From assembly GCA_033558025.1 (NCBI GenBank), contig JAUCEF010000012.1:992001-1056000 (forward strand): 64,000 bases of DNA, read 5' to 3'. Positions 16,261 to 48,703 of the stretch are shown here, piece by piece; within the stretch, counting starts at the first letter, position 1, and each line of letters opens with the position of its first letter. Source of the DNA: Phytophthora sp. 'mugwort' (Eukaryota > Oomycota > Peronosporomycetes > Peronosporales > Peronosporaceae). A model generated the notes under the pieces. That model searched no databases. It was not told the origin of the DNA and worked only from the letters and a program-made list of their open reading frames with translations. The position numbers were made by a program, and so were the translations under genes.

Positions 16261-16829
16261 GCTTACATACAGCTGAAAATGACTTCCTCATCTCGCACGC
16301 TCATGAATCTGCGAGCGCGGCAGCGAGCAAATGGAAGATCCCGACACAGCGTTCGCTTAAAAACCCTCGTCGGCCGCGCGATAATGAGTGCCGACACACG
16401 CGCCTTTTTCGCTTGGTCAGAGATCTCAGGCTTCGTCACGCAGAACGTTGGACTTCATGTTGGTCACACCCGACGATGGATCGGCGTCTTCCGAATAACG
16501 ACGCTCTCCTCTTTCCTGCTTCTCAGAACTCGTATCTCTCTCCTCCTCGTCCTTCTTCGTGATAGAGTTCTCCTCCCCGTCCTTCATCTTCTGCTCCTGC
16601 GGCTGTACGTCCTGCGTATCCTGCTTCACCAGCCTGGACGCCACGGCTGCGAACATTTTTGGGCTGAACTCAATTCTGTCCCCCACTAGAAGCAGCCATG
16701 ATCTCCGAAGCAACCGCATTCTAGCATACACACGTCCGGCGCCGATAGCGACCCGAAGTTCAGTAGGAGCGTCTAGCCCAGAAGCGAGCCCAGCGACGAG
16801 GCCAGTCAGCCGCGCCCAGCCTCCACGAG
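16261..16829. other. Low-complexity charged region, origin unclear
   Basis: A minus-strand open frame (16878-16426) encodes a Lys/Glu-rich C-terminal part that looks gag-like, but its family is unknown. By the inversion model, the right end of this block (around 16.8 kb) is the left breakpoint next to the Polinton fibre fragment. Confidence 0.3.
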
Positions 16830-17530
16830 TCCGACACCGATAATGCGGCGGGAGCCACGGATACACTTGGGGTCTCAATGGGCACCTATACGGCTGATCC
16901 GGTCAGATGGATGGTGAATGGTACCAATCGGATGATGCTAAGCGCATCAGGTAGGTTATCGGTTGATCGGGTCTCTCCGGAAGCCACAATCCGTTCTGGT
17001 GGCCAAATTTGGGCTGACGAGCAGATTCATGTCAAAAGCAACCTAGCAGATAAGGCGATGTACCGTTGGAATTGGATCCAATCGAATTATCCCGCGATCG
17101 GAAATCATGTCAGTCCATCGACTATCCGAATTTGCATTTGTGATTCTAATTATGCATGGGGACAGGGTATGCTGCTATTATATGGAGGATCGTATACAAA
17201 TGGATCAGATAGAGATTACAAGAAGGATTTCAACGATATCCCATATGGTTTAGAGTTTGTGATGCGCCCTCGCGCCTTCACTTGGAAGCAGGACAATCGA
17301 CGCTCTATTGGTTTTATAGCCCAGGTGATGTTGGATGTACGTCCGATACCTGTTAGTGGCGATCCGGGTCATCCGATAAACCCCGATACAGGCATGCTTA
17401 ACGATGGGATGGGCATTGACCTAGGATCGCTGACGGCGGTACTATGCAAGGCGACCCAAGCGCTCAAAGCCGAATTGGATCAATTAAAAAATAGTCTTGA
17501 TCACCCTTATAGCACGAATGTACGTGTTTT
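16830..17530 (+). pseudogene. Fibre protein C-terminal part with peptidase S74-type chaperone domain
   Basis: The open frame at 16878-17648 extends in frame upstream without a Met (…DNAAGATDTLGVSMGTYT…). It reads like virus fibre proteins: NGTNRMMLSASGRLSVD, then SDRDYKKDFNDIPYGLEFVM ... PRAFTWKQDNRRSIGFIAQ, which matches the S74 intramolecular-chaperone pattern (SDxxxK ... GFIAQ) with Ser-Asp present. A short coiled coil (KATQALKAELDQLKN) closes the domain near 17500. It has no N-terminal fibre region of its own. That part lies at 29257-30618 on the other strand, so this is half of a broken gene. Sequence after ~17530 is not fibre-like. Confidence 0.72.
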
Positions 17531-17722
17531 TTTGGGATTTATTGTGAGCCCATACGCTGGTGCCCGATCTGGTTGCCCTAATCACGGAATCATTCCTTGG
17601 TGGAGTTCTAACTACGAGCTTCTCCATGAGGGCTTTCAGCTCCGTTAGGTTGCTCTTGGCCTCGCGCTGGCTACGCGTTGCGGGTGTCGATTAGTCGAGT
17701 GTTGATGAACATAACCATGTTG

Positions 17723-19835
17723 CTATACGATGGCGAGCAAAACTTCTTTGAACTCATCGTCAGAAAATAGTTTTGCAGAGTACATATCCACGAGCACTCG
17801 CTTGAGGTCACGAATCATGACGGGATTATCGTTTCCGAGCATGAGCTCTCCCTTCAGCTTCAGGTACTCTTGCGTGAGTACATCGCGTGGATCCTTGATC
17901 GGATCGCGTAGCGCGTGCTGAATATGCGTGATACGAAGCAACTCATAGAAAGACTCATTTGTCATCCATGGACAGTGATTCATACAGCTGCTGGTTGATG
18001 GAGCCATTGAATACCAGAGTCTTGATCAGCTCCGACAAATCCTTACTAATTTCGCGCTGTGCTCCGTCTGTCGAGCGATTGGGATAAACTACTTTTAGGA
18101 TACCCTCGTTGAGCTTCGGGAGATGGACAAATATAGTCCCAATCCGTTGTATGCCAGCGCTGAGTAAGTACCGGTGCCCTCCAGCTGCGTGAGATTATAG
18201 CCCCGGTTGGAGTGATACTTGATCGGGTTCCCATCCTTATCAACGAGCTTTTTATTAACGTATCCGGCTCCATGAAGACCCCGCTCTCTTACGGCTGGTT
18301 TCATCTCAAGATTCATATCAATCGATGGACCATCGCTCGGGATAACTTTCTCAAACGTGGATTTGCTGAGCTGAGGTCCGAGTCGATGCTCTCTGATCTT
18401 GTCAGGATTGTCGTTGTAGTATGTCACAGCCTGAATGAGATATTCGATAACACCTTGAAAGGTTAGAGGACAGCTAAGATTCATACGTGTCAACGCTTCC
18501 GCCGTAGCAAGCGGATCCTCCGTCAGATTCGGCACCGGCGTGCTGTCTCTGGTTTTGGCTTTGATCCGACGAATACCGCCAAATAGATCGAGGTAGTATC
18601 CACTCGGATGGTATCGCTTATTCAGCTTCGATACTGCCGGAGGTAAATATTCTCGAAGCAACCAAGGATTATCTGTGTATAGATCTTGAACGAGCTTCTT
18701 ATAATCACCAGCGGCATAGACCATATCAAAATTGCTCCAACCGATCGACTCAGCTCGTTGAGGTTCGGTCGCTTCTGATCGATGTTCAAGCCAGATACAG
18801 CGCTATCCTCGAGTGGTCGTTTTGTTGCTGATTTTATCGCTGCTCCAGTGGTATCCAGTACGATGTCTCGGTTCTGAGCGCTTTGGAAGAGAAACCAAAG
18901 AGTGTTGGGCCACGACAGAAGAGAACGCTCTTTCTTATCGGATTGACGATGATTCGAGATTTGACGGAGCTTAAAATCGTTTGGATCGATGTAATATTCA
19001 CTGAGTGGCTCGGGCAAGCCTCGAAGACTATCTGAACGCCCCACCGCACAGAACCCAGATTTGCCATTGAAGCTATGCAAGAGCTTACTCTTGACGACCT
19101 CTCTGTTGTTTCCTATGACTTTGATCAATTTGTTTTCGATTCTTGAGCGATATCATCAGTTCGCGAGTCTTTTGACATATTCTCATCAATAGCTTGATTG
19201 ATGATCGAGTTTAGAGCGGAGCGACTCTCACCCAGTCTCTCACTACCAACGTTTTCCTTCAGTGTGTTGAACGTAGGGCGTAGAGCACACGATTTCTCTC
19301 GTAGCTCTCGAGCTCGAACATGACCATCCACTAATCTACTTGGGGTGAGGATGTACTCGAGAGTAGCTTCCCAGTCGATGATACCGACAAGTTCACTTTG
19401 CTTATCGTTTCGAACGGCAATCCGAGACGAGCGGTGATAAAGCCTAGCGTCAGGGCCAGGAAGTACATATCTCGTTTCGCTTTAGCATCAGATACCAGTA
19501 ACGGATCAAACATTGGATGAAGATCCCATGCTGCGAGGTCAGGCTGGGGTTTGAACAAATCGACTATTGCCTCGTAAGTCTTCCTCTGGCGATCTCATCC
19601 TCACCCGAGGTAGATGTAGTCGCCTGAGCTGAATTGTTCTCTGATGTAGTTGTTTGAGTTTCAGTCGATACCATGCTTGATGCTATCGGAATTATGCTCG
19701 CTTCGCTATTGGTGGCCCACACCGTCTCCGCATATCGTTGCTTTAGATGATTACGATAGATATCTTGCGCTCAGCATCGTGGAGTAGTTCTTGTCGCTTA
19801 CGTCGCGCTGTGATAGAGTAGAGAATGACGAACAT
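17723..19835 (-). pseudogene. Large Polinton protein of unknown function, frameshifted
   Basis: A run of consecutive minus-strand frames in one direction fits a single ~700-residue protein: a start Met at 19835 (MFVILYSITARRKRQELLHD), then a Thr/Ser-rich part, and frames at 19558-19331, 19331-19125, 19128-18622, 18724-18095 and 18007-17723. Identifiable stretches include YYIDPNDFKLRQISNHRQ and WLLREYLPPAVSKLNKRYHP. I recognise no catalytic motif. Its place inside the element suggests a virion or element-specific protein. Confidence 0.5.
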
Positions 19836-19842
19836 CGTTTGA

Positions 19843-20317
19843 TTATACAACAGCAGAGATAGTATTGACTAAAATATTAAATATAATTTTAGTAAGAATA
19901 CTGGTTGGTGGTAAATTTATGGAATCTCCATCGATCGCAAGTATGTGATGGACGAGAGCGTTTCGCCTCGTGAGCAATCGATCGTACTCATCTCGAGCCT
20001 CCACGGCTGTCATATCAAATAGTTTCTTAATATGCCCTCGAAAGAACGGATTATCGATGATTGCTCGATATGAATGATTATCTCCACCAATTTTGATCAG
20101 TTCCGATTTGATGTAGTCGAGTCTCTATATGACATCAATCTTTTCTTTCCGATCATTGCTTATCTCAATGTATCACCTGATTCGCTGATGCATCTTCGCG
20201 AGCTCCTTGCGGTACATAACGATTTGTTCATCTTTATCGTGCTGAAAGCAATACCCTGATTTGAGAGCATTGCGAGCACGGGACGTTGCTTTTAGTGGTT
20301 GCTTGACATTTACTCAT
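19843..20317 (-). pseudogene. Small protein with CxxxTKS...GYCFQHD zinc-binding-like N-terminus, frameshifted
   Basis: The minus strand starts MSKCQATTKS at 20317. After frame changes it gives ALKSGYCFQHDKDEQ, which resembles a short Cys/His zinc-binding module seen in many phage and virus proteins (DUF5763-like, by memory). A helical region follows (MYRKELAKMHQRI, then VEARDEYDRLLTRRNALVHH), with two internal stops. The stop at 19843 is 7 bp from the start of the next minus-strand gene, a compact virus-like spacing. Confidence 0.5.
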
Positions 20318-20361
20318 ATCAAATTTATCGCTATCTATATATATTACCAAATAGTTTTGCA

Positions 20362-20466
20362 ATGGATGAGATCTAGTACATCGATTACGATGCTCTTGAT
20401 GCCGCTGCAGTCTATGACAATACTGGTGATGAGGAAGAAGCTGAAATTATTGTAAAAAATATGTAG
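20362..20466 (+). pseudogene. Tiny acidic ORF with one stop
   Basis: ATG at 20362 gives four codons, a TAG, and then an in-frame acidic stretch (YIDYDALDAAAVYDNTGDEE) to a stop at 20466. It may be a small element gene with one nonsense mutation, or chance. Confidence 0.25.
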
Positions 20467-20528
20467 AGCTCAGGAGACGAGCTGAGATAGCAAGAATTGA
20501 GCTTGCGCCATTGGCGCCTCCGAGACCG

Positions 20529-21415
20529 GTCAGATGCCCGTCTCCGGCGAAGCTTGATCTGTACCCCAGTACTGCTTCTCCAGCGTGCTCATCTCATTTT
20601 TGTTGATTAGTCGGAGATTGTCCTGACTCTCCCATGACGGCTCATCATACCCTTTCCGCTAAATAAAATACGTGTATATGCCGTTGCGCATTTGTTTTTA
20701 TGATTCAGAATCGCCTCCGCTTCATATATCTTACCAGGTTCAACATCCGTATCCGTGATAGCAAACTTGACGTGTTTGAGCTCGTTGGGGGACTTATAAA
20801 GAACGTGGCCGTTCTTGGAGCGTATTTGGATGCGATATCCATCCATTCCTGCAACTTCATAGACGAGAGTACTTCACTTCGCAGTTTCCTTACCAAACTG
20901 TTTCGATTTGAGACGACAAGCAACTGTCTCACCCGTAGTGAATTCATTGTCGACCTCTCGTAGTAGTTTTTTTATTTTGATCGAGCTCCGCTTGAATGAC
21001 GCTTCCTCTCGCTTCGTTTGGAGTCATGCCAATGGCGCTATGCTTAGTTGAATTGTAGTTCTCAATCAAGTCGGATACTAATCGCTTGCATAGAGTAAGC
21101 TTTGAACGCAGCAACCGTTGCTTGATCGTTCGATTGTATCGCTTGATTTTCCCATCGTTGAGCGTTCTCCAGGCTCATTGTAGAAATGAGTAATTTTCGA
21201 CTTCTTGAATAGCTTTGGACTTTTTGATTCATGAATTCAGATCCGTTGTCGCTCGTCATGATGCTCGGTTTGTGAAGTTTTACGAAACGTTTGAGAGCTC
21301 TCAGAATGGTGTCTGCTTGTTTGTTAGGGGTTAGCTTTACGTACCCAATCGAATATTGATATTGACGGCTGCGAGTAGCGTTCACCCTTCCCAGTAATCT
21401 GTCGATATTACGAGA
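20529..21415 (-). pseudogene. Polinton integrase: catalytic core C-part plus chromodomain
   Basis: Minus-strand frames give AAVNINIRLG and GYVKLTPNKQADTILRAL, then the second catalytic Asp in MTSDNGSEFMN. After a frame change comes YNEPGE and GK-IER with the catalytic Glu. Further on, FTTGETVACRLKSKQFGK resembles the SH3-like region. A chromodomain follows: IYEAEAILNHK, then, after a frameshift, KGYDEPSWESQDNLRL, ending near 20529. The N-terminal part with the first catalytic Asp is absent here; it sits on the plus strand at 25785-26006. Chromodomains at integrase C-termini are known in Polintons and chromoviruses and are thought to guide insertion. Confidence 0.8.
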
Positions 21416-21499
21416 TACGTAAATAATCGAGATCATTTTATTTTACCTATCTTAACAAATAATTACTTAGTATATAGATACTATCAAGAATCTACAGAA

Positions 21500-21691
21500 A
21501 TGGCCTACTCACCCGAGAAGTATCAATCCAACAAGGCAACCATCGCAGCTGCGAAGAAGCGATATTACGAAAAGAACCGCGAACGGATTCTCGCTCGTCA
21601 GAAAGCGTACGATGAGAAGCATCGTGAGGAGATAAGCGAACGCCAGAAGAAATACTACGCTAAACGCGCTGGAAGGATTGTTCTCGACTAA
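21500..21691 (+). CDS. Small basic Lys/Arg/Tyr-repeat protein of the Polinton
   Basis: 63 residues, intact. It is built from repeats of a charged helix-forming unit around K-x-Y-x-E-K-x-R-E: KKRYYEKNRERILARQK, then YDEKHREEISERQKKYYAK. Highly basic, probably one long helix or coiled coil. Similar small proteins occur in large DNA viruses and Polintons; a nucleic-acid-binding role is inferred from charge only. It lies ~110 bp before the polymerase gene on the same strand. Confidence 0.6.
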   Translation: MAYSPEKYQSNKATIAAAKKRYYEKNRERILARQKAYDEKHREEISERQKKYYAKRAGRIVLD

Positions 21692-21804
21692 ATTCTAACT
21701 TTCTTTTATTGGTAGATGGAAGAGTTTTCTATTTAAAGCAAACCCTGATACAATATACCAAGTAGATAAAATAATATTTTTATCTTTTACCTCATATACT
21801 CGCC

Positions 21805-24800
21805 ATGTTGTTCTACGAACTCGATGCTCTCAAGCGCCTTAATATCCCAGTCAAGCGATGGGGCTCCTCCTTCCATGTCAAGGTGAAGAACCGAAACGGT
21901 CGCGTCGTAAATATCTCATCATTCGAAAAGGGTAAGAAGCGCGAGCTTCTGTCGAAGCTGTACAAGCTCTCTAAGTCTCGTATCTCGAAACACTTCACCC
22001 CCCAACTACAAGGAGCCTTCCAGCTTCAGCTTTCGTAAGACCAAAGTCTATGATGAATACCTGTACCAGAATTACTCGCGTAAGGACATCATGTTCAACA
22101 TCCGTTCTGTACTGGCTAAGGAGAAAAAAGCCTTCAAGGCTCAAGTACAGCTCGGCTACAAGCTGGTCGACCGAATCACCGGTCTGGAGAGAAACTACCA
22201 GCCATCGACGAATACGGGTGTATTCAACAAGTTGGTTCCAATCAATTCTAAGGCTGATATTGAGAAGAAGATCATGTCTGAGATGGAATCGAAGGATTTT
22301 ACGGAGAGGATCAGCTTTCCTTCTTCGAGCTATCAGCTCAAAGAGATTACCATGGCTAAGATCATAATCTACAAGCGCGACCACACCCTCGGAGATTCGG
22401 AGATATTGTCTCGGCTATTAAGAAAAACAACTTCATCACCAATTTTCCTAAGACAAACAACAATTGTGTATTTTACTGTATCGCCGACCATCTTGAGAAT
22501 GATGCTCGCGCCGATCGAATGATTGGACCGGTCCAAGACCGTATTAAGGAGTATCGTTCATACAAGGTGATCAAGTACGCTACCAAGTTCTTCAAGGAGA
22601 TGCAATCTATCGGTATCATGCAGTTCGATGAGCTGGAAGAATATTTCCAACTCTCGATCAACGTGTTTGAGATGAATCAGAGAACTCTCGAGATTTCGGA
22701 GATTCGTGAATCTGAGAAGAGCTACGAAAACATGATCAACATCCTCGACTACAAGGGACACGCCATGTATATCAAGAACATTGGCACAGTTCTCTCTAAG
22801 TATCCATGCAACGTGTGTGATGCTATCTTCACTACGTATGAGAAGCTTTGGAGCCACAAGAAGACGAAGTGTGAATTTGAGGTCCTCGAATCATTCCTGG
22901 AGGAACCAACCATCTACCAGCCTCAGAAGAACCAAGTGAAGAATCTCCTTACCAAGTATCGAGTCAAGGATGTCGACCATTACATCGACCACTTCATCGT
23001 ATATGATTTTGAAGCTATCTTGATGCCGACAGCTACTCAGCGTAGAGAGAGCAATATCTACACTAATAAGCATATTCCTGTCTCGGTGAGTGTATGAGGC
23101 AGTCGTACAAACGAGGTTCGATGCTTTATCAATGTATCACCTATCCAACTACTTAAGGATATGTTCAATTATATTAGTGGAGTGAGCGATAGGATCGGAC
23201 TATACAACGGACACAAGTTCATGCCTCTCATCGAAGCTATCGATGGTAAGATTAATTATCTGGCAAAGATGAACCCTGGGATCATGGATGGAGTTGATTT
23301 CGGCAACATTAAGAAGATGCGTAAGGAGAAGCCGAAGCTGAAAGCATTTCTCGATAATAACTCACGCTTTGCGAGAGATGAGCCGATCGAGAACATTATC
23401 TATCAAGTCCCAATCGTTGGCTTCAACAGCGGTAGCTATGATATTAACCTCATCAATAATGATCTATTCACCGTTCTGGGTGTTCAGAATATCAAGAACG
23501 TTATCAAGAATCCAAGCTACATGTGTATCTCAGCTAATTCTTACAAGATCCTCGATATCTGCAACTATCTTCCACCAGGAAGGAGCTATGAAAAATATCT
23601 CGAAACGTATCTTGGAGCATGTGATTGCGATGACAAGATTCGTTGCATCTGCGGTTTTAGCAAGGGGATTTTCCCATACGAGCTCATTTCCTTATTCAAA
23701 GTATTTAGTCAGACTTCCATCCCATCAAAGAGAGATTTTGATAACGAGTTTCGAGAAACAGTCATCAGTGAAGATGACTACGAGCGAGTCAAATTCGTTT
23801 GGGAACACTATGAGATGAAGTCAGTGGAAGAGCTATTGATTTGGTACAACAATCTCGATGTCCCGCCATTTGTGAAGGCTTTCCAAGCTCAACGTGAGTT
23901 GTTTAAACGATTTGACCTCGACACCTTCACTGACGGTGTCAGTCTCCCTGGTCTATCCGAAAAGGTTATGTATCAAACCTCCTTCAAGAACCTTGAGAAG
24001 CCACCATTGATTGCAGCGGCACCGTTTAACTCCCTTGAGCAGCGGTACAACGGATACTGTGACCAAGACAAGAAGGCTAAGCGCGAGTTTGGAATGACTA
24101 TGCAGCACGTCGATAAGATACTGAAGAAGCAGAAGTTTCTTCGCGACTCTGTTACTGCCAGCTAACGCCTGAGACCGCATCTGCTGATTGAATCAACAAC
24201 AAGCTTGGACATGAAGATGGCAATGTCCTCATCAGTTGCGTTGCTTGCAACGTAGCATGTAAGGATATGCCTCTGAAAGCGTTCAGATACAAGAAGTTAC
24301 TCGACTTCAGCAACGACAAGCTTATTTACCCAATCGACGCGGAAGAGAAGGAGATCTACCACAAGATGAAGGTTAACATCGCTGGCGGCCCATCAACCAT
24401 ATTCAGTCGATACGCTGCGCAACGAGACGAAGATTCGTGGCGGAAAACTCTGTAAGAAGATCATCGGATGATGCTAATGCCCTTTACCTTTGGGCTCTCG
24501 GGAATGAAATGCCATGCGGACGTCTCACAACGATCGAGGCCTATGAAGGAATCATCGATGATATCAAGGCTGACAAGATCTTTGGGTTTCTCGAGTGTGA
24601 TATCAGAACACCAGAGCACCTCAAAGACTACTTTTCAGAGATGACTCCCATCTTCAAGAATGTTGAGACCGACTGCAACGATCATATCGGATCTCACATG
24701 TACGAGTACAACCAATCCCGTGAGTCAGGTCGCGCAAACCGTCTCGCAAGCTGATTGGAAGCTACTTCGACGAGAAGATCCTGATCTACACAACTCTATC

Positions 24801-25755
24801 AAGTGGTATCTGGAGCATGGCATTGAGATCAACAATACCCTACAGCTTCATCAGGGTAAGCTCTCACCAAGACTTCAAACCATTCCTGGAGGAAGTCTCA
24901 AACGCTTGTCGCGAAGGTGATGTTGATAAGAACAAGGCAATGATTGCTGAGATGGTGAAGCTGGTCGGTAACACGCTTTCGGTCGCTCTGATATGGACAA
25001 GAGCAAACACAAGAGGTTAAGTATGAAAGCTCTGACGCAAAGGTTAGAGCCATCATTGAGAAGCAAAATTTCACAATGTTGAGGAGCTGACTGGCTCATA
25101 CCACGTCAGTCTCAAGAAGCACTGCATCAAGCTCAACAATCCGATCCATCCCTCGATCGCAATCTATCAATTAGCTAAGCTGCGTATGCTCCAGTTCTAC
25201 TACGACTGCATCGACAAATATTTCGATCGCTCTGACTTCCAGTATAAATAAATGGACAGTGATAGTGCTTACATCGCCTTCAGCTGTGAAAATCCTTTCA
25301 GCGAGGCAGTCAAGCCGGAGCTCCAGGATCACTTCAAGCAACACAAGTACGAATGGTTTCCTCGCGATCAGAACTCGGAAGTATCCAAGTTCGACCGTCT
25401 TACACCTGGCCTGTTCAAGGATGAGTGGTAGGGTGATGCTGTGATTTCGCTATCATCCAAGAACTACATCTGCTACATGCCAAATGAGACGTACAAGGTT
25501 AAGGTCTCTGCCAGGGTGTTCAGCAGGGTCACGGTCGCAACAGTGATGTGTTGAACCCTGCTGGATTCGAGTCTGTTGTCAATGATCATATCACTCTCAC
25601 GGGAACCAACAAGGGCTTTCGCATCTGTAAGGAAGCAGAGGTATTATCACCTACACACAGCAGAAGACTGCTCTGAATTATTCGTACGACAGGCGGCAAG
25701 TGCTCTCGGATGGGCTTTCAACGATTTCTCTAGATCTAAAAAGTGTTATAAACAC
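21805..25755 (+). pseudogene. Polinton protein-primed family-B DNA polymerase, frameshifted
   Basis: About 1,300 residues in several frames. The N-terminal region (21805-22990) includes a Cys/His finger-like stretch (YPCNVCDAIFTTYEKLWSHK). Exonuclease motifs follow: I, VYDFEAIL (~23010); II, GFNSGSYDINL (~23420); III, WYNNLDVPPF (~23840). Polymerase motifs: A, DDANALYLWAL (~24470); B, KLVGNT (~24960); C, MDSDSAY (25252). The TGA at 23095 keeps the frame open on both sides, so it is a single nonsense mutation; frameshifts are seen near 22010, 22400, 24160, 24430, 24740, 24980 and 25530. The order matches DNA_pol_B_2 enzymes that start synthesis from a protein primer. Confidence 0.85.
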
Positions 25756-25784
25756 ATATCTTTTTTTATATATAGGTGGTTACG

Positions 25785-26006
25785 ATGGAACTACTCTCCG
25801 AACTCTACAATGATCCCAAAACATGTTTCGTCGGTGTCTAGGGCCTGTATGAGAAGGCTAAAAGCATTGACAGCTCAATCCGTCTCAAGGATGTGAAAAC
25901 ATGGTACGCGAGCAACGCTGATACTCAACAGTTTCAGGATCAACGACGCCGCTTCGATCAGTTCCACATCGCAAGCAACAGTCCAGATTCATGGCAGATG
26001 GACTTA
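25785..26006 (+). pseudogene. Polinton integrase N-terminal part with first catalytic Asp
   Basis: ATG at 25785 gives MELLSELYNDPKTCFVGV, one TAG (near 25839), then LYEKAKSIDSSIRLKDVKTW and FDQFHIASNSPDSWQMDL. The Trp-Gln-x-Asp block is the first catalytic motif of retrovirus-type integrases. Integrase similarity then stops, exactly where the minus-strand integrase core at 21415 begins. The two fragments do not overlap and together give one integrase. It lies only ~30 bp after the polymerase end. Confidence 0.72.
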
Positions 26007-26131
26007 AATCGACATTTATACTCCAAAGCGGTTGTGTAGCAACAGCTCTTGTCGGGACGACACCAAGTCCTATCGGAAGGTACATAACATTCTATCTTCT
26101 CATTACCTCTGATAAGATCACCTTCACATTT

Positions 26132-26558
26132 CTAATGACCTAATTTTCTCCGAACGATCGGGTATTCCCTCTGATCCTTGAACCAAGTAAATTCCATCAA
26201 TCTAATACAATATGTCCGATCCTTAAGCATGTCTTCGATGGATGCATACTTTGAGTTGAACGATAGCTGAACCATGATTAATTCGAGTGCTATATATGGG
26301 ATCTTTTCCGTCTTATACCACAAGATCTCGAGAAAAAAAGGATTGGTTGAATGATTACGCATTTCATTTGTAGCTCTCTATCTTCTGAAGAGCTGGAGAT
26401 CTCCAAGCATGACCGTTCTCCGATTCTGGCATCGATGAAGACCATGGTGTATGTCTTTTTGTCTTACAATGATGAGCGTAACTCCACCCTTTTCCGATAT
26501 AACCGCAAGGACATGAGACCTCCTCACAGAGGTCAGCTTTGAAAATATTGAACATCAT
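26132..26558 (-). pseudogene. Small zinc-finger-like Polinton protein, frameshifted
   Basis: Starts MMFNIFKADLCEEVSCPCGY at 26558, with CPCGYIGKGWSYAHHCKTKR giving a C-x-C ... HH/H pattern like a single zinc finger. After a frame change, a downstream frame at 26362-26132 reads YIALELIMVQLSFNSKYASI and could be its C-terminal part or a neighbour. This is the gene nearest the 26851-27058 terminus. Confidence 0.4.
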
Positions 26559-26743
26559 CTTCTCAGCTTTCTCAGCATTTCAAACATTTGGAGCAGACAT
26601 TACCATTCTTGAGAATGAAATTATACATTTCTGCTTGTTCAGTAGTCGAAGTGGTAGTAATATATTATATCTTTAACATTCATCTGTTTAAATAGGATGG
26701 AAAAAGTTATTCAAATATTGTTCCTCATTTGTGCTATATGATC

Positions 26744-26956
26744 GGTGCTCTACCTCCTTCACAGTGATAAAATATTTTCCTCTTGATATTGACTATGTTA
26801 TAGGTGCTTTAACTCCTTCACAGCTTTTTTTTTAGGGTACTCCCTTTTGATGTGAGAGCTCGAGAATATTTTTTGATTGTGTCAGATGCTATAAAATTCT
26901 CAAAAATAGCTCATATGAATATTAGCAATAGGAATGGTGCTCTGTCTCTTCCACAG
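26744..26956 (+). repeat. Three copies of a GGTGCTYTRNCTCYTYCACAG motif
   Basis: Copies at 26744-26764, 26803-26823 and 26936-26956, the last inside the terminal repeat. A fourth copy is in the other terminal repeat near 35312-35332. Recurrence next to the ends suggests a protein-binding site, such as for integrase or the terminal protein, but this is not shown. Confidence 0.6.
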
Positions 26957-27058
26957 CGAAAAGGTGAAACTTTGTTGTGATGGTATAGACGGGGCTATTG
27001 GGCGGGTTTATGCTCGATGTGTTAAAAACGGTAGGATAAACGGTTGTTACGCACTACT
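26851..27058 (+). repeat. Polinton terminal repeat, now in direct orientation
   Basis: This ~208-bp sequence matches 35229-35438, including TAGCTCATATGAATATTAGC and AAACGGTAGGATAAACGGTT, and ends in CACTACT. Polinton ends normally start AG and end CT, as here. It reads in the same direction as the copy at 35438, which is abnormal for terminal inverted repeats. Confidence 0.88.
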
Positions 27059-27064
27059 GATGAT
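27059..27064. repeat. Target-site duplication, copy 1 (GATGAT)
   Basis: The six bases immediately outside the terminus. They are the reverse complement of ATCATC at 35439-35444, as expected if this end was flipped after a 6-bp duplicating insertion. Six bp is the usual Polinton duplication length. Confidence 0.75.
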
Positions 27065-29256
27065 TGTCAAATGTCGTTCAGCCCGTAAAACGGACCGTAA
27101 ACACCTGCTCCTCCTCGTTCCATGTTATGGCGGTCTTAGTGGCAGCCTTGCACTCTGTATACTTGTTGAATAAAACAATGCTCTGCGCAGACCCGTACTA
27201 AGACACTTCCGTCACCATTCTTGGGTGCAGATCGGCTTGACCCCAAAGGTCTTGGAGCTCATGTGCCGAGCTAGCGCCAACTTGAGCGCGGATTTCTGTG
27301 TTTTCACCGGTTTGGAGTCAATCGAGGTGTAGCTGTATCTACTGTCAAGCCTCTGGAACCACCTGCGGTGATCAAGGAGGCGAAGAAGCGACGGAAGCAC
27401 CGTACGAAAAACAACGTTGGAGTGGAGAAAGAGAGTTGTCACTTCGAGGTTCCTCCATCTGTTGAACATTGCCCCGAGAGACCAAGGCGAGTTCGGCTCC
27501 CCAAGGCTTGTCGCCGGGATTACGTCGCTAACATCTGTAGCTACAAGTCGCAAGGTATGAAAATTTATCATGTCGACGAAATAACACTGACACAAGACAC
27601 TCAGTAATATCATACTGAACAAGATTGATATGGTTCGATCTTACTTCGATATCTTAATGGAATTTTTTTCGACATTTCGACATTTCGAAAACCTAAAACA
27701 TGAACTTGGCACCCTTTCCCTCCCTTCTTCCGTTCTTGCAAGATTCACTGGCTCTCATATGGAGATTCGCGTTTGGACCTCAAGTGACGTATTGAACTGT
27801 TGCCGATGTACGTGCAATCGATAGCGACGCTTCCCGTGTATATTTGACACTAAATGAGTTGCTGCATAATCCTGTTACGCTCTCGACGCAACGTTTAGTG
27901 CATTGCGTTCAATAGCCGCGTAACCAGAATCAATCTCTTCACCCTCAAATACTTCACCAAGAAATTCGCTTCACAGCGATGAAGTCGGAGCACAATCAAC
28001 ACCATCCCCGGGGTCTCCATTGTCGCTAACCTCATCTGCATCCACCGCTCCGCACAGTTGAGGTGACGGGTGAATATACTAGAGCTGATTGCTGCATCAA
28101 GAATTATTTCTCTCTCACATGGAGATATCATGATTTTGTTGCCGAATCATGAGATGCATCAGCATCCGTTTTGGCGCGTTGGCGAAAATGCTTAGCGAAA
28201 ATCAAGCGCCTTGCTTGCAGCCATGCGGTTATGTTTTACCGTGTGGATGATTCCAAGTTCGTCAAAGTACGAGGCCGTATTTACTGCATTAGATAACACT
28301 CTCATTGCGAGTTTCGGAAGCTGGCTCTTCGGACGTTCCGTCGCAATGCACTCCCAATATGGATATGGGTTTCGAGAAACTCGCTGGGTTCCGTTCGCGT
28401 AAATCTTCCCTTCGTCCAGGATAGCATGTCACGCCTAATCTCGTCGATGTCGTCTGTATTGAATAACTTACGATAGTGGTAAACGACAATCTTGCACAGC
28501 GTTGCCAATCCGTAAGACGACCATATCGGGCACTTTCTTCGAATGCTCCAGATTACCAGGATGCAATGCAAACCCCGCATGAAAAAGGGTTGTCCGCACT
28601 GCACCCAACGACCCTTAATACAATTAAACAGGTTTCACGGTGGACGAGATGTCGCTGTAATCCTCCGTGTATGTCGCGAAAAAAAAGACGACATCGCCAA
28701 CCGTATTTTGGTCGCACTGTAGTCAATACGGTGGAACCGACAGTAATGCAAACACTGCTTCAGCTTCTTGATCCTTAGTGAGCGTTGTGCACGCATCTGG
28801 CGATGTGACTAACATAGCTGCGCGGTCTGCCAACGATAGCGTTCGGTGGAGTCGCGGTTACCTCATTATCATAATCAGCCCTGCATTATCGATATTTGCA
28901 GCCACCTACCGTCCTTTCCATACCCGTCCGTTGTTTGAAGTGTCTTGCTTCTGGGCAAGGTGAAAGCCCGCCCGCTGTATCGTGATTTTACTTTGATATA
29001 GGGTAGCTTGACTCGTCGGCGCTGGACTTGACTCTTTGTCGGCTCGCCCCGACGTTCAACCTGGTGCAGCTGCCAGCCTTGGTGCCGCTGTCGGAAGTGG
29101 ACGCAGATCATGTGCCGATGCTACTCCTGACCCCGACGCTGTTGCCAGGCTCGACGCTGGTCGGACCTGGCGCGGCTGCTGGACTCCGTGCCGCAGTACA
29201 CCGACGATGATACCAAATTTGATTGGTGTGGCATTATCATTCCACACCTCCATGCT
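27065..29256. other. Inverted left flank of the Polinton insertion; repeat debris
   Basis: By the inversion model this is host DNA that originally lay left of the element. It holds partial frames (for example minus 28604-28302 with SYGLATLCKIVVYHYRKLF, and plus 27368-27607, Arg/Lys-rich) that look like decayed repeat proteins, but I recognise no family. The end at 29,000-29,230 is GC-rich. Confidence 0.45.
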
Positions 29257-30618
29257 TCACCGCCATGAACCAAATAGAGCACTGCTGTTATCTACGATAT
29301 GAAACAGACTCGTTGGAGACGTCGCGTTTAATCTTAGGCGGGCATGATAGGTAGTGCGTATTTGTTCATCGACCGATCCGTTTTGAGCATTAATGTTTTT
29401 TGTGGCGAATATCAGATTACCACCAGCTGCTGGGGCGGCAGCGCCTCGCTCAAAGCAGATAGCCGCACCGGTTGAATATACAGTGTCTGCATCAGCAATG
29501 GCTGAACATACATGACAAGGTAACATTGGAACTTTAACAGCAAATGAGAAAAAAGAAGCTAAGAAATAAAAAATTTCATATGAAAAATTAAAATTAATAT
29601 CTGATAATCAGTAATTCCAATGCTCATTCCTGTAGTAGAGATATCACGAGATCTACTTGTGGAGCGTCTGCGTTCCTAAGAGAGATACAGTCGAGTTTGA
29701 CTTCAGTCGGATATTAGCAATTCCGCTAATGCCGGAAGCGCTATTCAGAACCAGGGCCTTGCTCGGTTCAGCTACTCCAGGACTCATTACGTTGATATCG
29801 GCAATCACCCGACCATTAATACATAGGCTCGAACAGTTGAAAGCTCCATTGACGTCAAGCTTGTAGCTTGTGGATACTCCAATCTTATTGATCGAAATAT
29901 TGCCTGACGCATCCATGAGCAATCGATCAGAGTTTCCGTATCACCAAAAATAGCAATTTGCTGTGGTTGCACTCGAACTACCGCGAACCTCCTGCTTCAT
30001 CTGATAGTAGCTGACGATGTTCATAGAGACTGAAAATGTCATATTATCATTTGGATCACGAGAGCTTTGCTAGTGCTTCCTCCTGAAAACGAGAGGTGCC
30101 GAAGACCAGTGATATCATAGCCGGCATCAGACACCAGAGGTTTGCTTGGTTCAACTACACCAAGTGTTGTCAGCGATAATTGAGGAACGAGCGATAGATC
30201 AGCTTGGGTAACATTGACGTATAGGCTCGTGCAATTGAACGCTCCATTAACGGTATCAGCGCCCAGAGCCTTGCTTGGTTCGACTATACCTAAACTGGTC
30301 GAGTACCGGCTGATATCATAAGCAACGCCATCCTGCTTGTACGAGATAGAATCGATGCTATTGAGAGTCGCGATCTCTTTGTTAGAATTCAATATGATAG
30401 CATTACATGGTGTTGCTTGACCGGGTGAGGCTGATAGCAAAGATAAAATTGCTTAGGTCGACGCTTGTACCGTTGAGAGTTAGTAATACACAATCGAGAG
30501 AATTGATACCTCCAATGTCTCGATTTGAATCAACGACGAGAGCTGACATGGGCGTTGCTTCTCCCACAGTGATCCCAGAAATATTACTTAACATATCATC
30601 GCCCGCGATCCTGATCAA
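29257..30618 (-). pseudogene. Fibre protein N-terminal repeat region, frameshifted and cut
   Basis: Minus-strand frames 30618-30403, 30440-30039, 29922-29653 and 29526-29257 share a repeated unit of ~60-70 residues with the signature GxxxPSKALVxDxxxDIxG, e.g. LGVVEPSKPLVSDAGYDITG, GVAEPSKALVLNSASGISG and LGIVEPSKALGADT. The last segment, GAAICFERGAAAP ... DEQIRTTYHARLRLNATSPT, is the pre-S74 region of virus fibres. The gene stops at 29257 without an S74 domain, which is found at 16830-17530 on the plus strand. Fibre repeats of this kind are known from large DNA virus and phage tail fibres. Confidence 0.68.
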
Positions 30619-30629
30619 GAGCTATACAA

Positions 30630-31084
30630 TTATATGAAGGACAAATTGAATGGCTTCATAACGCTGTATGAGCCATCAGCTGCACCTCGGTTGATGATAT
30701 TCAGAAAGATTCCAGAGGTGGCATCCAGCTCGTCATCATTGATGACTACGCTCGGATAAGAAGCTTCAGAAGGATCTATTCAGTCATTACTTCATCCGCG
30801 GTCGCCACAAACGGTTCTCAACACTATTTCTGACGCATTCGTGGTTCAGCATGGACAAGCTTATTAGGCTCAACTCAGAGTACCTCTGGATCCTCAAGGC
30901 AAACAGCAGACGAGACTTAAGAATGGTTATCAGCGACTTCAGTCTCCCAGGAATTACGCTTGAGAAGCTAATTAGCGCTTACAATGAAGCCACTAAAGAA
31001 AAAGGTCAAGCATTGTTGACCGACAATGTTAGAGGCGTATTGAGATATAATTTTAGCGAACATGAAATTAGTTTCAATGATTGA
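30630..31084 (+). pseudogene. Polinton FtsK/HerA-type packaging ATPase, C-terminal part
   Basis: The Walker B segment LVIIDDY (~30730) is followed after a frameshift by a virus ATPase C-terminal region: YFIRGRHKRFSTLFLTHSWF, then MDKLIRLNSEYLWILKANSR and a closing ALLTDNVRGVLRYNFSEHE. The P-loop (Walker A) part is not found upstream, where the opposite-strand fibre gene lies, so the gene has lost its N-terminal part. The family pumps the genome into the capsid. Confidence 0.68.
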
Positions 31085-31097
31085 ATATACAAAATTC

Positions 31098-31894
31098 ATG
31101 TCGAATATCATTACCCTATCTACCCGCCATCTCATTTCCAATGGATTCAACAACATGCTCCGATACGAGTTCCCTGGCAGCTCTGTCGAGTTCGTCAATA
31201 CCGAAATTGCTATCCACAGCATCAACGTGTATAATTCTCAAACCAATATCGACTCCACTTCATATGGCAATAATTCTTTCAAGATTTTGATGCCAACCGG
31301 CACTGACTACTCGACGATCCAGATCGTACTTTGTGACGGATATTACAGCTATGCCAATATCAATGCATCTGTTCAAGCAGCGATGATGAGCGCCGGAGCG
31401 TACCTGATCAATGCTGATGGCGACAATGTGTTTTATTTTAAGTTGTCTGAGAACCCTACATTCTACTCCTGCCAGGCTGATCTCTCGCCGTGCCGACGAC
31501 CCTTCCTTCGGGCTAGTCTCGACCGCCTACTGGGCTATACTCGGACAGCAGCTCTGGATTACCGCTTGAGTTCTTGTGCGTTCCCAAGATCGATATTGAT
31601 AGCGAGTTCGGAAAGGTCATTGGATTCGAGCTTGGTACGTTCCCAACTCAGAGCTTATATGCATTACAGTCGATCCTATCGCCGATCGCGCCTCAAATCA
31701 ATCCCGTATCAAGCTATCAGCTGCGATGCTCGCTCGTTTCCAACCCCTGCTGCGTCCTTGATGATGTATTAACTACCTTCAACACAGCAGGCACCACAAT
31801 TGGTCGGCTTGTAAGCTATCAACCTAACGAGTTCAACTGGGCTAATATCCCGAATGGAAGCTACGCCTCGGTGACGCTGACGATTGTAGATTAG
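31098..31894 (+). pseudogene. Polinton minor capsid (penton-like) protein, frameshifted
   Basis: Starts MSNIITLSTRHLISNGFNNM at 31098. Beta-rich sequence such as SVEFVNTEIAIHSINVYNSQ and YYSYANINASVQAAMM fits the single-jelly-roll minor capsid protein of Polintons (the strand that ends in N, then a phi-x-I-N pattern). A frameshift near 31480 moves the C-terminal half to the frame ending at 31894 (IGFELGTFPTQSLYAL ... SYQLRCSLV ... YASVTLTIVD). It follows the ATPase directly on the same strand, and its family neighbours agree. Confidence 0.6.
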
Positions 31895-31967
31895 GACGAA
31901 CGATTTGCTCGACTGAACGAAACGAACATGCTGATCAACTTAATTATTCGACAAAAAAGTAAAGCAT

Positions 31968-31985
31968 TATATATATATATATATA
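31968..31985. repeat. (TA)n microsatellite
   Basis: About nine TA units between the convergent minor capsid gene and the small minus-strand gene. Confidence 0.8.
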
Positions 31986-32029
31986 ATCTAAAACTCCCCC
32001 CTGAGCCACCAGAGCTCTTAGAGCTACCA

Positions 32030-32302
32030 CTACTCTTGCGCATCGCGGAGTCGCGCCATCTTCGCCTTCATTTCCGGATAACCCTTGGCGAGGCTCAAGC
32101 GTCGCGAGGGCTTAGCCTCGGCAACTCCGACTCCTGTAAATTTCTTCAACGCTTGGCGAGCAATGCCAACGAGAGCCGGTTCGCGACCCGTCAATGCTAC
32201 GTAGGCAGATCCCATGCTGGCGAGTCCGTCTGCGGCAGCCGATAGAGCAGGATTGATTACTGGTTTCCAAGCACTCTTGAGTCCAGCCCAGATCTTTTCC
32301 AT
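32030..32302 (-). CDS. Small Ala/Lys-rich Polinton protein with amphipathic N-terminus
   Basis: 90 residues starting MEKIWAGLKSAWKPVINPAL, with an Ala/Gly-rich middle and a basic helix (KPSRRLSLAKG). An amphipathic N-terminus plus basic tail is reminiscent of adenovirus pVI-type membrane-active cement proteins, but I see no direct similarity. It overlaps the upstream gene by about 46 bp in another frame. A Ser/Gly-rich segment in another frame just after the stop suggests the original C-terminus was longer. Confidence 0.4.
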   Translation of the reverse strand: MEKIWAGLKSAWKPVINPALSAAADGLASMGSAYVALTGREPALVGIARQALKKFTGVGVAEAKPSRRLSLAKGYPEMKAKMARLRDAQE

Positions 32303-32555
32303 ACAGACGAACCTTGAACACTGCCCACAATAGTTTCCATTGGGTAATCAATTCCGTGCGGAGTAATAGTGATGCGAACGCCTCTGTTAGCTTTCTTAGC
32401 TTTCACAACCTTAGCGTACGATCCTGGGTGTAAATGTAAGTTGCGCCAGAGCTAGCCAGATCAGCTTTGGTCAGCTGCAGGTTGCCGGACTGGGCAGCCT
32501 TAATGAGGCAAGCCGCTGGGATAGCATCGGAAATGGATAGTTCGTTGTAAAGCAT
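32257..32555 (-). pseudogene. Small basic Polinton protein, frameshifted
   Basis: ATG at 32555 (MLYNELSISDAIPAACLIKA). A frameshift near 32415 is followed by YAKVVKAKKANRGVRITITP and a stop at 32257. The Lys-rich middle could bind DNA, as core proteins do. Family not recognised. Same strand and close spacing as the protease gene upstream. Confidence 0.45.
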
Positions 32556-32632
32556 GATTGATATATTAGCTTGAGAGTTAAAAACCTTAAAAAATTAAAT
32601 AACATCAATATCCAAATCCATGAACCTATCCA

Positions 32633-32983
32633 TTAGATGCATTTTTTGTGCTGGCGACAATAGAGCCACAAGAGGCACCAGACTCCACAATATTCCGCTG
32701 TGGAAGCTTAAGTCTGCCTGTCAAAATACGGGGGATTTCCTAACGCGGTCGGAGGTGGGACGCCCATGCTATCGAAGTAGCTACCATCACATACAGCGAC
32801 CCAATGTCCGACTCCAGGGCTCGTTCTAAGCAGTACCAGATGGCTTCCCTTCGCGGGGAGCAGGCGTTCGATCTCGGAAAGCTCGACTATGCCATCAATC
32901 CTTACTCCGATGCGCTTGCTCAGCTCGATTAGATCGTGATCAGAGGTGACACCTTTGACTAACTCCATTAAGTATTTTCTCAC
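32633..32983 (-). pseudogene. Polinton adenain-like cysteine protease, one nonsense codon
   Basis: 116 codons starting MRKYLMELVKGV. The His block is GVGHWVAVCDGSYFDSMG, as in adenovirus-type (C5/Ulp1-like) proteases where HW and an FDSxG segment follow each other. A TAA at 32708-32710 then interrupts. The same frame continues to AEYCGVWCLLWLYC, which holds the catalytic Cys (CG), and ends at 32633. Only this one stop breaks it. These enzymes mature capsid proteins. Confidence 0.72.
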
Positions 32984-33015
32984 CAGAATATATCAGCCGC
33001 AATATACTTCCAGCC

Positions 33016-34839
33016 ATGTCCGACACTACCCAATTAGCGGACGCCTATCTACTGAAATCAGCCCTCAAATCCGAGGCACCGTCAATGTATTTAAGGTTAA
33101 GTCCGTACCAGTCATCCATGATGGCAACCAGGGATCGTATGACTCGGGATTGATCGCGACTGATGCTACCTCGCAGCTAACAGGCTCGCAAGGATATGAT
33201 AGCGTAAAGGATGGCTACCTTCTACTACCGTATGTTATCACTGCTAAGAGCACCGGCAGTGCTGACCTCAACAAGAGCACTATCTCTAGATTTGCGTGTG
33301 CGCTCAAATGTAACGTCACCAATGTCGTCGACTCTCTGACTGTCGAGCTCAACGGTAAAGCAAAATTGTCACGGAATCTGAATACAAAGGCTTTTGGAAC
33401 AAGCTACGAGCGATGAGTGAACTTTCTCAGGATGAGGTGGCGAAGCATGAGGCTGACATGCGTTTATATCCTGGTGCGCGGTCTGGCATCAAATTTAGTG
33501 GTTCTGCTTCAGCGACGGTCGATGGCTACTTGAACAATCAGATTGGTGCGACATCGCCACTCGACACAACGTTATCTCAGGCCCAGGAGCCGTGGGCGTA
33601 CAACAGTGGGTTCTTCAAACGTCTGACGAACACTCCCGCTCCCATCGACTCTACTGAGGCCTATGGAGCCTTCTCGTCGGCCTCGTTTGGTACTACAGCT
33701 ACCAAACAGATCCTTCAGCAGAACGGGCGCGGCTGTTTTAAGGAGACGGATGTAACCTCGCTCGGCAACGACAATTTGTTGGTCGCTGGTTTCATATGCT
33801 AAAAATCAAGCTCGTAGATCTACACCCCATTTTCAAGAAAATCGATCATTGCGCTAATCCATAGTTAGAGCTCCGCTTGCGTATTAATGCTGGTACGGTT
33901 GCTCTATCAGGTACGACTTCGACTATGAAGCTCGACTCGACTACGATGACCACCGGCCAGACTGTTCCTATCATGATTGCCCCGGCTACAGCTGCTGCTA
34001 AGACTGCGGCTAGTGACACGATCACTCCAGCCGCGCCAATGAACGATGTACTGACGATGTCGGTTCTCAGCTTTCATTCTCGTTCGGCCCAATTGGCAAC
34101 GCATTCACGTCTACCAGCCAGATTGGCGAGTATTTCCCATTCACAACCAGCCGTTTAATGACCCCCTTCTATCATTTATGCAATCCGACTCTATCATCCA
34201 GAAGACGGTGAAGACCCTTCGCTACCAGGACTGTTTCACCCAGTGTTTTGCAAGGGCCTGGTACGTCTCCTGCGTCGCCTACTGGCCAGTTAAATGCTCC
34301 TTCCGATCTCAACATTTCTGGATACAAGAAAAAGTCAAATACGTGGCTCTTATCCCGTTCGCTAAGACGAGCGCTGGCCACTTCGCCAACCAGCACGGCA
34401 CGCCGCAGTATCCGAGTCTCTAGATAGTGCTCCCTGGACTTTCACGCCTGAGGCTAGCATCCGAAATGTCCAGGTAACCATCGGTAACACAAACGTGCTC
34501 GAAAAGAGCCAGGAGTATGCTTTCGAATCCTTCCGCCACGAGTTCAGCAAACTGGGAGCCATTAATGGAGATCTCAGCGGTGAGATCTCGAACGGATTGA
34601 TTGACTCACAGCAGTGGTCGATAGCTCAACGCATCCTCGTAGCTGACTGCTCGCGTATCATACGGAAGGAGGTGCCTCAGGTCATTCAGGTATCGGGAAT
34701 CAACGGCTCGACGACCGGCATGGATATTCTCGTGCTCGCTATGTACGAGCGAGAACTTGAGATCGACCGTTCACAGGAGAAGTTCGTAGAACTGATTGAA
34801 CACCTCACGTTGAATGCTAATTCATTTAATTTAAAATAG
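33016..34839 (+). pseudogene. Polinton major capsid protein, frameshifted
   Basis: Starts MSDTTQLADAYLLKSALKSE at 33016. After a frame change it reads SVPVIHDGNQGSYDSGLIAT and LLLPYVITAKSTG. Frames at 33413-33802, about 33800-34160, about 34200-34430 and 34495-34839 continue it, giving ~600 residues. The C-terminal block (HEFSKLGAINGDLSGEISNG, then RILVADCSRIIRKEVPQVIQ) matches double-jelly-roll capsid proteins of Polintons, where NG, a SR-phi and a terminal ERELE stretch recur. At least four frameshifts are needed, so it is dead. It is the last large gene before the right terminus. Confidence 0.75.
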
Positions 34840-34870
34840 AAATGATCTGGCTACCTATCTACAGAGCATC

Positions 34871-35182
34871 ATGAGTACATTAAATTTTGGAAAACATAAG
34901 TCAAAGACTATTGAGGAGGTATATGCCTTTGATCCAGGATACTGCCGCTGGTTATCGAATCAAAAGAGTCTCGTTGAAGACAGCAGTGATATTGGCAAGT
35001 TCCTGGATCAGAAATAGCAATGATGATGGATCATACATCATGTCGTGGGGAAAATATCGCAATAAGACGATTAAACAGATCCAACCATTGACCCTGATTA
35101 CCTTGATTGGTTGAGTAAAAACAACCTCGTTAAGTCGAAGATTCCGAAGCTGAAGATTGAGGTCGATGAACTCCTGAAGTAA
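34871..35182 (+). pseudogene. Protein with two FGKHK...DPGY..WL repeats (ExoX C-terminal/DUF3820-like), frameshifted
   Basis: MSTLNFGKHKSKTIEEVYAF then DPGYCRWLSNQ forms repeat 1. MSWGKYRNKTIKQI and DPDYLDWLSKNNL (after a frame change) forms repeat 2. The G-K-x(3)-K-T-I-x(2)-[IV] ... DPxYxxWL pattern is the small domain found at the C-terminus of exonuclease X and in DUF3820-type proteins, often alone in phages. Its role is unknown. It ends 46 bp before the terminal repeat. Confidence 0.6.
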
Positions 35183-35228
35183 GCGTGTTGATATTTTTTT
35201 ATTAACAGCAAATATTGTTCTTCTGGGT

Positions 35229-35438
35229 ATGAGGGTTCGAGATTATGTGGTGATTGTGTTAGATGCTATGAAATTCTCGAAAATAGCTCATATGAATATT
35301 AGCAATAGGAATGGTGCTCTGTCTCTTCCACAGCGAAGGATAAAACATAAGTGTGTAATGGTATAGACGGGGCTCTTGGGTGGGTTTATGTTCGATGTGT
35401 CAAAAACGGTAGGATAAACGGTTGTTTTACCCACTACT
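35229..35438 (+). repeat. Polinton terminal repeat, right end
   Basis: ~210 bp, diverged copy of 26851-27058 with the same end CACTACT. It shares TAGCTCATATGAATATTAGC and AAACGGTAGGATAAACGGTT. Confidence 0.88.
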
Positions 35439-35444
35439 ATCATC
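35439..35444. repeat. Target-site duplication, copy 2 (ATCATC)
   Basis: Six bases directly outside the right terminus. Reverse complement of GATGAT at 27059-27064. Confidence 0.75.
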
Positions 35445-47164: not shown

Positions 47165-47218
47165 TGACACATACAAAAGATCGCACACTTTGTCAATGAA
47201 ACGGACGTGTTTGTGCAG

Positions 47219-48559: not shown

Positions 48560-48580
48560 GATGGTCTCGGTATTTAATTT

Positions 48581-48587
48581 GAATGAT
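48581..48587 (-). promoter_or_regulatory. Oomycete initiator-like motif
   Basis: On the minus strand AATCATTCAAATTAAA matches the oomycete initiator plus flanking AT-rich region. It lies ~25 bp upstream of the ATG at 48559. Confidence 0.45.
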
Positions 48588-48703
48588 TTCCTATTGTCAC
48601 ATTTGACTAATGGCGGATAGGGCATAATAATCGGCCTCCGAAAATAGCATTGGCAATAAAATGATTTTAGAAAATAGCTATTAAATACCATTTCGACAGA
48701 CAC

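What the first reader, a model, noticed from the sequence alone, without database searches (positions are those of the whole stretch)
16830..35444. One Polinton whose terminal repeats were turned into direct repeats by a ~12.4-kb inversion
Seen: ~210-bp repeats at 26851-27058 and 35229-35438 lie in the same orientation and both end CACTACT. The six bases outside are GATGAT (27059-27064) and ATCATC (35439-35444), exact reverse complements. Known: Polintons have terminal inverted repeats starting AG/ending CT and make 6-bp target duplications. Inferred: the element inserted once (duplicating ATCATC), then a segment from about 16.83 to 29.26 kb flipped, taking the left terminus, half of the element and ~2.2 kb of left flank with it. 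Undoing the flip gives proper inverted termini, matching duplications and a ~16.4-kb element with a full gene set. Three independent facts (repeat orientation, duplication, split fibre gene) agree.
Basis: partly seen in the sequence, partly recalled or inferred. Interest (0 to 1): 0.9.

Follow-up and report, generated by a model that had tools for sequence, protein, structure and literature searches.

The report
Polinton relic scrambled by nested inversions
A decayed virus-like transposon in a Phytophthora-like genome seems to have inserted once and later been flipped by a 12.4-kb inversion with a second 4.6-kb flip nested in it; it looks like ordinary transposon decay rather than a new kind of element.

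Summary
In detail: two 88%-identical ~210-bp terminal repeats lie in direct orientation, flanked by GATGAT and ATCATC. Host DNA joined as rc(27065 onward) + ATCATC + 35445 onward aligns in one piece to a diverged empty-site paralogue on C5. Host 16838 joined to rc(29198) aligns across the join to hAT-like paralogues on C7 and C10, with little on the left side. The segment is 16839-29198 (12,360 bp) and cuts a Peptidase_S74 fibre gene.

Block 21400-26007 (polB-like region) is inverted against its neighbours compared with 9 of 11 sibling copies, all those where this can be judged. So a 4.6-kb inversion is nested in the 12.4-kb one; undoing the big flip alone does not restore the usual order. No long inverted repeats sit at the breaks, which suggests breakage and end joining. 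Assembly error is unlikely but not excluded without reads. Two copia fragments in the flanks remain unexplained. The element is an oomycete Polinton relic with broken frames.

The parts
16839..21398 (.). Block C of the element, flipped by the big inversion. It begins with the C-terminal part of the fibre gene (open frame to 17648 on +, Peptidase_S74). Its 21-kb end corresponds to the sibling piece with a weak rve integrase match (about 20760-21390, minus strand, by interpolation)
21400..26007 (.). Block B, 4.6 kb, holding the polB-like region (a sibling piece equivalent to about 24110-24775, by interpolation). It is inverted relative to blocks A and C compared with every sibling that can be judged
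26010..26850 (.). Block A, between the polB block and the left terminal repeat
26851..27058 (+). Terminal repeat, originally the left end, ending CACTACT
27059..27064 (+). GATGAT, the inverted copy of the target-site duplication
27065..29198 (.). 2,134 bp of host flank carried by the inversion: a relic whose paralogue has a sub-threshold ZSWIM3/FAR1-like match, a copia fragment (27312-27500) and a hAT-like relic (27868-29197)
29199..35228 (.). Block D, not moved. Holds the other part of the fibre gene at its left end (minus strand) and the major capsid gene pieces (33413-33802 and 34366-34839, plus strand)
35229..35438 (+). Terminal repeat, right end
35439..35444 (+). ATCATC, target-site duplication

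Best explanation
One ~16.46-kb Polinton (Maverick) of the oomycete type inserted into old transposon-derived DNA and duplicated ATCATC. Later two inversions scrambled it: 16839-29198 (12,360 bp, taking 2,134 bp of left flank and the 6-bp duplication along) and, nested inside it, 21400-26007 (4.6 kb, the polB-like block). Their order is unknown and they may be one event. I infer that both arose by chromosome breakage and end joining, because the breaks are tight (about 1 bp of overlap at the big inversion, a few bp changed at the small one) and no long inverted repeats sit at the breakpoints. The copy is a relic with broken frames and no sign of present function. Shown by sequence comparison: the terminal repeats, the duplication, both host joins (by diverged paralogues, the second more weakly), the block order of siblings and the split fibre gene. 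Inferred: the mechanism and the order of events.
For: Repeats and TSD. Host-only empty site aligns to L042 as one HSP across the insertion point: 545 bp, 69%, E 5e-53 with default scoring; 653 bp, 68%, E 3e-83 with relaxed scoring. It spans in 1 of 7 paralogue loci tried; four other joins of host flanks span in 0 of 7. Host join 16838|rc 29198 aligns across the junction to L032 (341 bp, 79%) and L031 (330 bp, 73%); as they stand, the two sides end and start at the same base of L032, 1501. Block order in 11 sibling groups, with C and D joined base to base in five. Neither junction of the 4.6-kb block is found elsewhere: of 11 and 12 other matches listed, none covers both sides (one runs about 8 bases past). 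Best inverted match within 500 bp of each breakpoint pair is 22.9 and 20.2 bits, against a mean of 20.3 (sd 2.1, maximum 29.2) for 100 control pairs.
Against: Two copia fragments, 15401-15881 and 27312-27500, lie in the same orientation now, as in copia copies elsewhere, but would face opposite ways before the big inversion; unexplained. A ~190-bp piece (27603-27789) also sits inverted relative to the C5 paralogue. The left side of the 16838|29198 join contributes only about 28 bp to the spanning alignment, in a locally repetitive hAT end; in L031 its best match is to another repeat unit; and the 200 random host joins (0 spanning) were mostly unrelated to these loci, so a weak control. In the C14 copy part of block B lies opposite to D, although canonical next to A and the repeat. 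No reads and no second allele were available. A 10-base inverted word lies 20-32 bp from the big breaks and a 7-base one at the small breaks, so short homology is not excluded.
Confidence: 0.83

Rival explanations
1. One reading: a single 12.4-kb inversion and nothing else.
For: Explains the direct repeats, the TSD and the split fibre gene.
Against: Leaves the 21400-26007 block inverted against the 9 of 11 siblings that can be judged; no other match listed in the genome holds either junction of that block.
Confidence: 0.04
2. One complex event: three pieces (A plus flank, B, C) broke at four points and were rejoined with the two outer pieces swapped and flipped, rather than two successive inversions.
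For: Four breakpoints, all without long homology; B keeps its orientation relative to block D, as in a reshuffle.
Against: No direct evidence; two ordinary inversions give the same order.
Confidence: 0.25
3. Assembly error: the contig is wrongly ordered in this repeat-rich region.
For: Many similar copies exist in the genome (18 terminal-repeat matches, a lower bound), and no reads could be checked.
Against: No N runs. No long inverted repeats at the junctions that would mislead an assembler. No other listed match holds the junctions of the small inversion; the two big-inversion junctions were not searched genome-wide as such.
Confidence: 0.08
4. Two separate or truncated Polinton insertions side by side.
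For: Two right-facing termini.
Against: The two six-base flanks are exact reverse complements, the blocks on the two sides do not overlap and together make one element, and the outer flanks join into an empty-site paralogue.
Confidence: 0.01
5. Programmed or site-specific inversion by a recombinase of the element.
For: A second copy on C14 appears to have its terminal ~1.1 kb inverted; a 7-base inverted word lies at the breaks of the small inversion; one sibling piece has a very weak Flp_N match, E 0.11, 13 bits against a cut-off of 25.
Against: Breakpoints are not shared between the two rearranged copies; no tyrosine or serine recombinase match above a Pfam cut-off in the pieces scanned.
Confidence: 0.02

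Closest known systems
Polintons (Mavericks) and the Gossevirus (GKS1) group of Polinton-like viruses in oomycete genomes
   Same: About 16 kb, ~210-bp terminal repeats starting AGTAGT, 6-bp target duplication, capsid protein family with a double jelly-roll-like model, S74 fibre domain, weak integrase and polymerase-B matches. Integrated elements, mostly of oomycetes, some with RVE and pPolB, some with terminal repeats and 5-7-bp duplications, are described in PMC7805220 (passages seen).
   Different: This copy is decayed and carries two inversions not seen in its siblings. Assignment of its capsid to the Gossevirus clade was not tested by a tree.
S74 (endosialidase chaperone) fibre proteins of Polinton-like viruses
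   Same: PF13884 in the C-terminal part of a fibre-like gene; reported as ubiquitous in PLVs from most eukaryotic groups in PMC12220804 (passages seen).
   Different: Cut in two here by the inversion.
Inversions by breakage and end joining
   Same: Nearly clean reciprocal breaks, no long inverted repeats.
   Different: Two nested inversions within one transposon copy; the general model is recalled, not read here.

Membership tests
Polinton/Maverick | Long terminal inverted repeats with AG...CT ends (the end rule is recalled) | tested here: met
   Inverted orientation in four siblings with both repeats in place: C12, C4 (two), C11 (right-end matches of both C4 copies stop short). Left ends AGTAGT in the 4 siblings read; right ends ACTACT, TCTACT and ATTACT in the 3 read. 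In the window the repeats are direct because of the inversion.
Polinton/Maverick | 6-bp target-site duplication | tested here: met
   ATCATC in the window, CATAAC on C11, TGCGAG/TGCGAA on C12; a single related ACCATC in the empty-site paralogue. Other siblings were read at one end only or not at all.
Polinton/Maverick | Retroviral-type (RVE) integrase | tested here: inconclusive
   Sibling piece L009:7849-8481 matches PF00665 at E 0.0019, 18.9 bits against a cut-off of 32.6, and a PHROG transposase family at E 3e-4.
[quoted passage not shown]
   Sibling piece L020:4077-4748 matches DNA_pol_B_2 at E 2.7e-4, 20.4 bits against a cut-off of 25.8, and L016:8490-9488 at E 0.023; no window piece scanned matched, and the 20 genome hits listed include none in the window's copy.
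Polinton/Maverick | Double jelly-roll major capsid protein | tested here: met
Polinton/Maverick | FtsK-like ATPase and cysteine protease | tested here: inconclusive
   No Pfam match to either in the window and sibling pieces scanned; frames are broken, so absence is not shown.

The most novel reading that the evidence does not exclude
The polB-bearing middle block is a module that is rearranged more readily than the rest: it is flipped at its edges here, and about 2.4 kb of its centre exists in two strongly diverged versions among otherwise similar copies, as if oomycete Polintons swap and reorient their replication block. The edges of the exchanged part do not coincide with the inversion breaks.
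Probability: 0.05. Interest if true: 0.5.

Novelty: new member of a known kind. Interest (0 to 1): 0.24.

Why it matters
It shows that an apparently abnormal Polinton with direct terminal repeats can be explained without a new element type, and that sibling copies plus diverged empty-site paralogues inside one genome can test an inversion and reveal a second one. It also suggests that scans for Polintons which require inverted terminal repeats will miss rearranged copies. Biologically it looks like ordinary decay.

Tried and rejected
Direct-host model (27065 onward continuing from the left host DNA without inversion), suggested by copia fragments lying in one orientation on C5, C17 and other contigs. 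My one test of it, the join 16838 + GATGAT + 27065 onward, is spanned in 0 of 7 paralogue loci, but that is not a fair test, because the copia match ends at 15881 and resumes at 27312. I set the model aside because the two joins of the inversion model are each spanned by paralogues; the copia orientation stays unexplained.

Inverted repeats as cause: none beyond control level.

Pfam and PHROG scans of broken pieces gave few matches. A profile of the capsid family found no capsid among PDB chains by sequence, only weak ribosomal S18 rows. Species: a calcium-dependent protein kinase at 4530-6377 is 90% identical to Phytophthora pseudosyringae and P. lilii proteins, so the genome is Phytophthora-like, species not resolved.

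Literature (listings only unless said): Polinton + Phytophthora + inversion gave 2 papers; Maverick, Polinton, nested inversion, rearranged, target site duplication, inverted orientation, at least 4 of 6, gave 6. Other searches: 62 papers, 15 listed; 2; 1; 166, 20 listed. I opened none of the papers listed, so I can say only that no title or abstract start there reports this. The words inversion and rearrange have 0 occurrences in the main texts of PMC10120064, PMC12220804 and PMC4028283 (term counts and passages); PMC7805220 was not asked for them (passages).

Full report
Setting. The window is C12:992001-1056000 of an unnamed 86.26-Mb, 154-contig genome. A kinase in it is 90% identical to Phytophthora proteins, and the fibre piece's only two relatives at E 1e-3 among 197 candidates are P. 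nicotianae proteins, so the genome is Phytophthora-like; the species is not resolved.

The two repeats are 88% identical over 210 bp in direct orientation, both end CACTACT, and the adjacent six bases are exact reverse complements. No third terminus was found in the window. The terminal repeat has 18 matches in the genome (a lower bound), two of them in the window. I fetched the surroundings of all 16 others; they form 11 sibling groups.

Sibling order. The usual order is repeat - A - B - C - D - repeat, where in window coordinates A is 26010-26850, B 21400-26007, C 16839-21398 and D 29199-35228. In the window it is C - B - A - repeat - host - D - repeat. B's direction can be judged from a neighbouring block or repeat in 9 of the 11 groups, and is canonical next to those neighbours in all 9. 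D itself is present in 6 of the 9; in one of these, C14 at 2.18 Mb, one part of B follows D as usual and another part, next to A and a repeat, lies opposite to D, either because this copy is itself rearranged or because a second element adjoins it. In the C7 copy only the repeat serves as neighbour. The other two groups (C13, C11 at 0.31 Mb) show only D and a repeat. Searches with each junction of B listed 11 and 12 other matches, none covering both sides. So B is inverted within the inverted segment: two nested inversions at least. The C-D junction, which the big inversion breaks, is intact base to base in five groups and has a deletion in a sixth.

Host joins. (1) The reverse complement of 27065 onward, one ATCATC, then 35445 onward should be an empty site. 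It aligns to C5 locus L042 as one HSP: 545 bp, 69%, E 5e-53 with default scoring, or 653 bp, 68%, E 3e-83 with relaxed scoring, where it is ungapped at the site; about 190 bp lie on the left and over 340 bp on the right. It spans in 1 of 7 paralogue loci; four other joins of host flanks span in 0 of 7. (2) 16838 should continue into the reverse complement of 29198. That join aligns across the junction to L032 (C7, 341 bp, 79%) and L031 (C10, 330 bp, 73%), which are related to a hAT-like element (Dimer_Tnp_hAT in the overlapping locus L030). As they stand, the left and right pieces end and start at the same base of L032. The second test is weaker: the left side adds only about 28 bp, the region is locally repetitive, in L031 the left piece matches another repeat unit better, and the 200 random host joins that gave 0 spanning HSPs came from host DNA mostly unrelated to these loci.

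Against. Copia paralogues on C5 and C17 have 15401-15881 followed about 200-320 bp later by 27312-27500 (or part of it) in one orientation. The window shows the same relative orientation now, so before the big inversion they would have been opposed. One ~190-bp piece at 27603-27789 is also inverted relative to L042. An older small rearrangement of the flank could explain this, but I could not show it.

Breakpoints. At the big inversion the junctions agree with siblings and host paralogues to within about 1 bp (one shared C); at the small one a few bases are changed. The best inverted match within 500 bp of each breakpoint pair is 22.9 and 20.2 bits; 100 control pairs average 20.3 (sd 2.1, maximum 29.2). 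A 10-base inverted word lies 20-32 bp from the big breaks and a 7-base one at the small breaks; neither is striking. Breakage with end joining is the simplest inference.

Genes. The C-terminal fibre piece (16878-17648) has Peptidase_S74 at E 4e-7. In L012 one 335-codon open stretch with the S74 domain (E 4e-11) crosses the C-D junction, and in L010 a 289-codon one does; in three other siblings the longest stretch over the junction is 119-140 codons. So the inversion cuts this gene. In the window the frame happens to run on into host DNA for 24 codons before 16839, so an open frame alone would not show the cut. The capsid gene is in D, in pieces 73% and 75% identical to a P. lilii protein whose moderate-confidence model matches mavirus and Sputnik capsid proteins, with low global TM-score in Foldseek. 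Integrase and polymerase-B matches are weak and from sibling pieces. ATPase and protease were not found in the pieces scanned. In print, integrated oomycete elements with RVE and pPolB are described (PMC7805220, passages), oomycete MCPs fall in the Gossevirus group (PMC10120064, passages), and S74 fibres are common in PLVs (PMC12220804, passages).

Verdict. The object is a decayed member of a known family with two inversions not seen in its siblings. A specialist would find it tidy rather than surprising.

Noticed in passing
L015 (C14:2178308-2179409 and onward): Another sibling copy appears to have its terminal ~1.1 kb (window 34737-35409 equivalent, with the repeat) inverted in place, joined next to the 34734 equivalent; so at least 2 of 12 copies, the window included, look inverted in part.
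   Followed up: partly
window about 21900-24260 (L009 3650-6000): The centre of the polB block is 59-77% identical to the C12 copy in five sibling copies (where aligned) but 87-97% in three siblings and the window, while flanking parts are mostly 76-94%: looks like two subfamilies with an exchanged ~2.4-kb cassette.
   Followed up: partly
L016:8490-9488 (C14): One open stretch holds a weak polymerase-B C-terminal match (E 0.023) followed by a helicase C-terminal match above the cut-off (Herpes_Helicase, E 3e-8): a possible polymerase-helicase neighbour or fusion in this family.
   Followed up: no
window 15401-15881 and 27312-27500: Two fragments of one low-copy copia family (8 other places listed for each) flank the element in the same orientation, which the restored host order does not explain.
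   Followed up: partly
window 16076-16652: Looks like a fragment of a DNA transposon of about 2.6-3.2 kb with short inverted ends on C7 and C4.
   Followed up: no
window 36327-36655: A ~330-bp repeat with at least 39 other copies at 88-91% identity in the genome; only 40 of 411 candidates were scored.
   Followed up: no
window 46349-47188 and 47219-48703, minus strand: A Kazal-type protease inhibitor gene next to a frame with a Tc5 transposase DNA-binding domain.
   Followed up: no
L023:1825-5778 (C13): An open stretch of 1318 codons lies inside block D of the C13 copy, between the window 34149 and 34145 equivalents: looks like a later insertion into that Polinton, not identified.
   Followed up: no
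L024 (C14:2043729-2044136) and L017 (C4:2703003-2704764): Extra block-B fragments: one between block A and the repeat in the C14 2.04-Mb copy, others outside the left repeat of the C4 2.70-Mb copy, perhaps from neighbouring elements.
   Followed up: no
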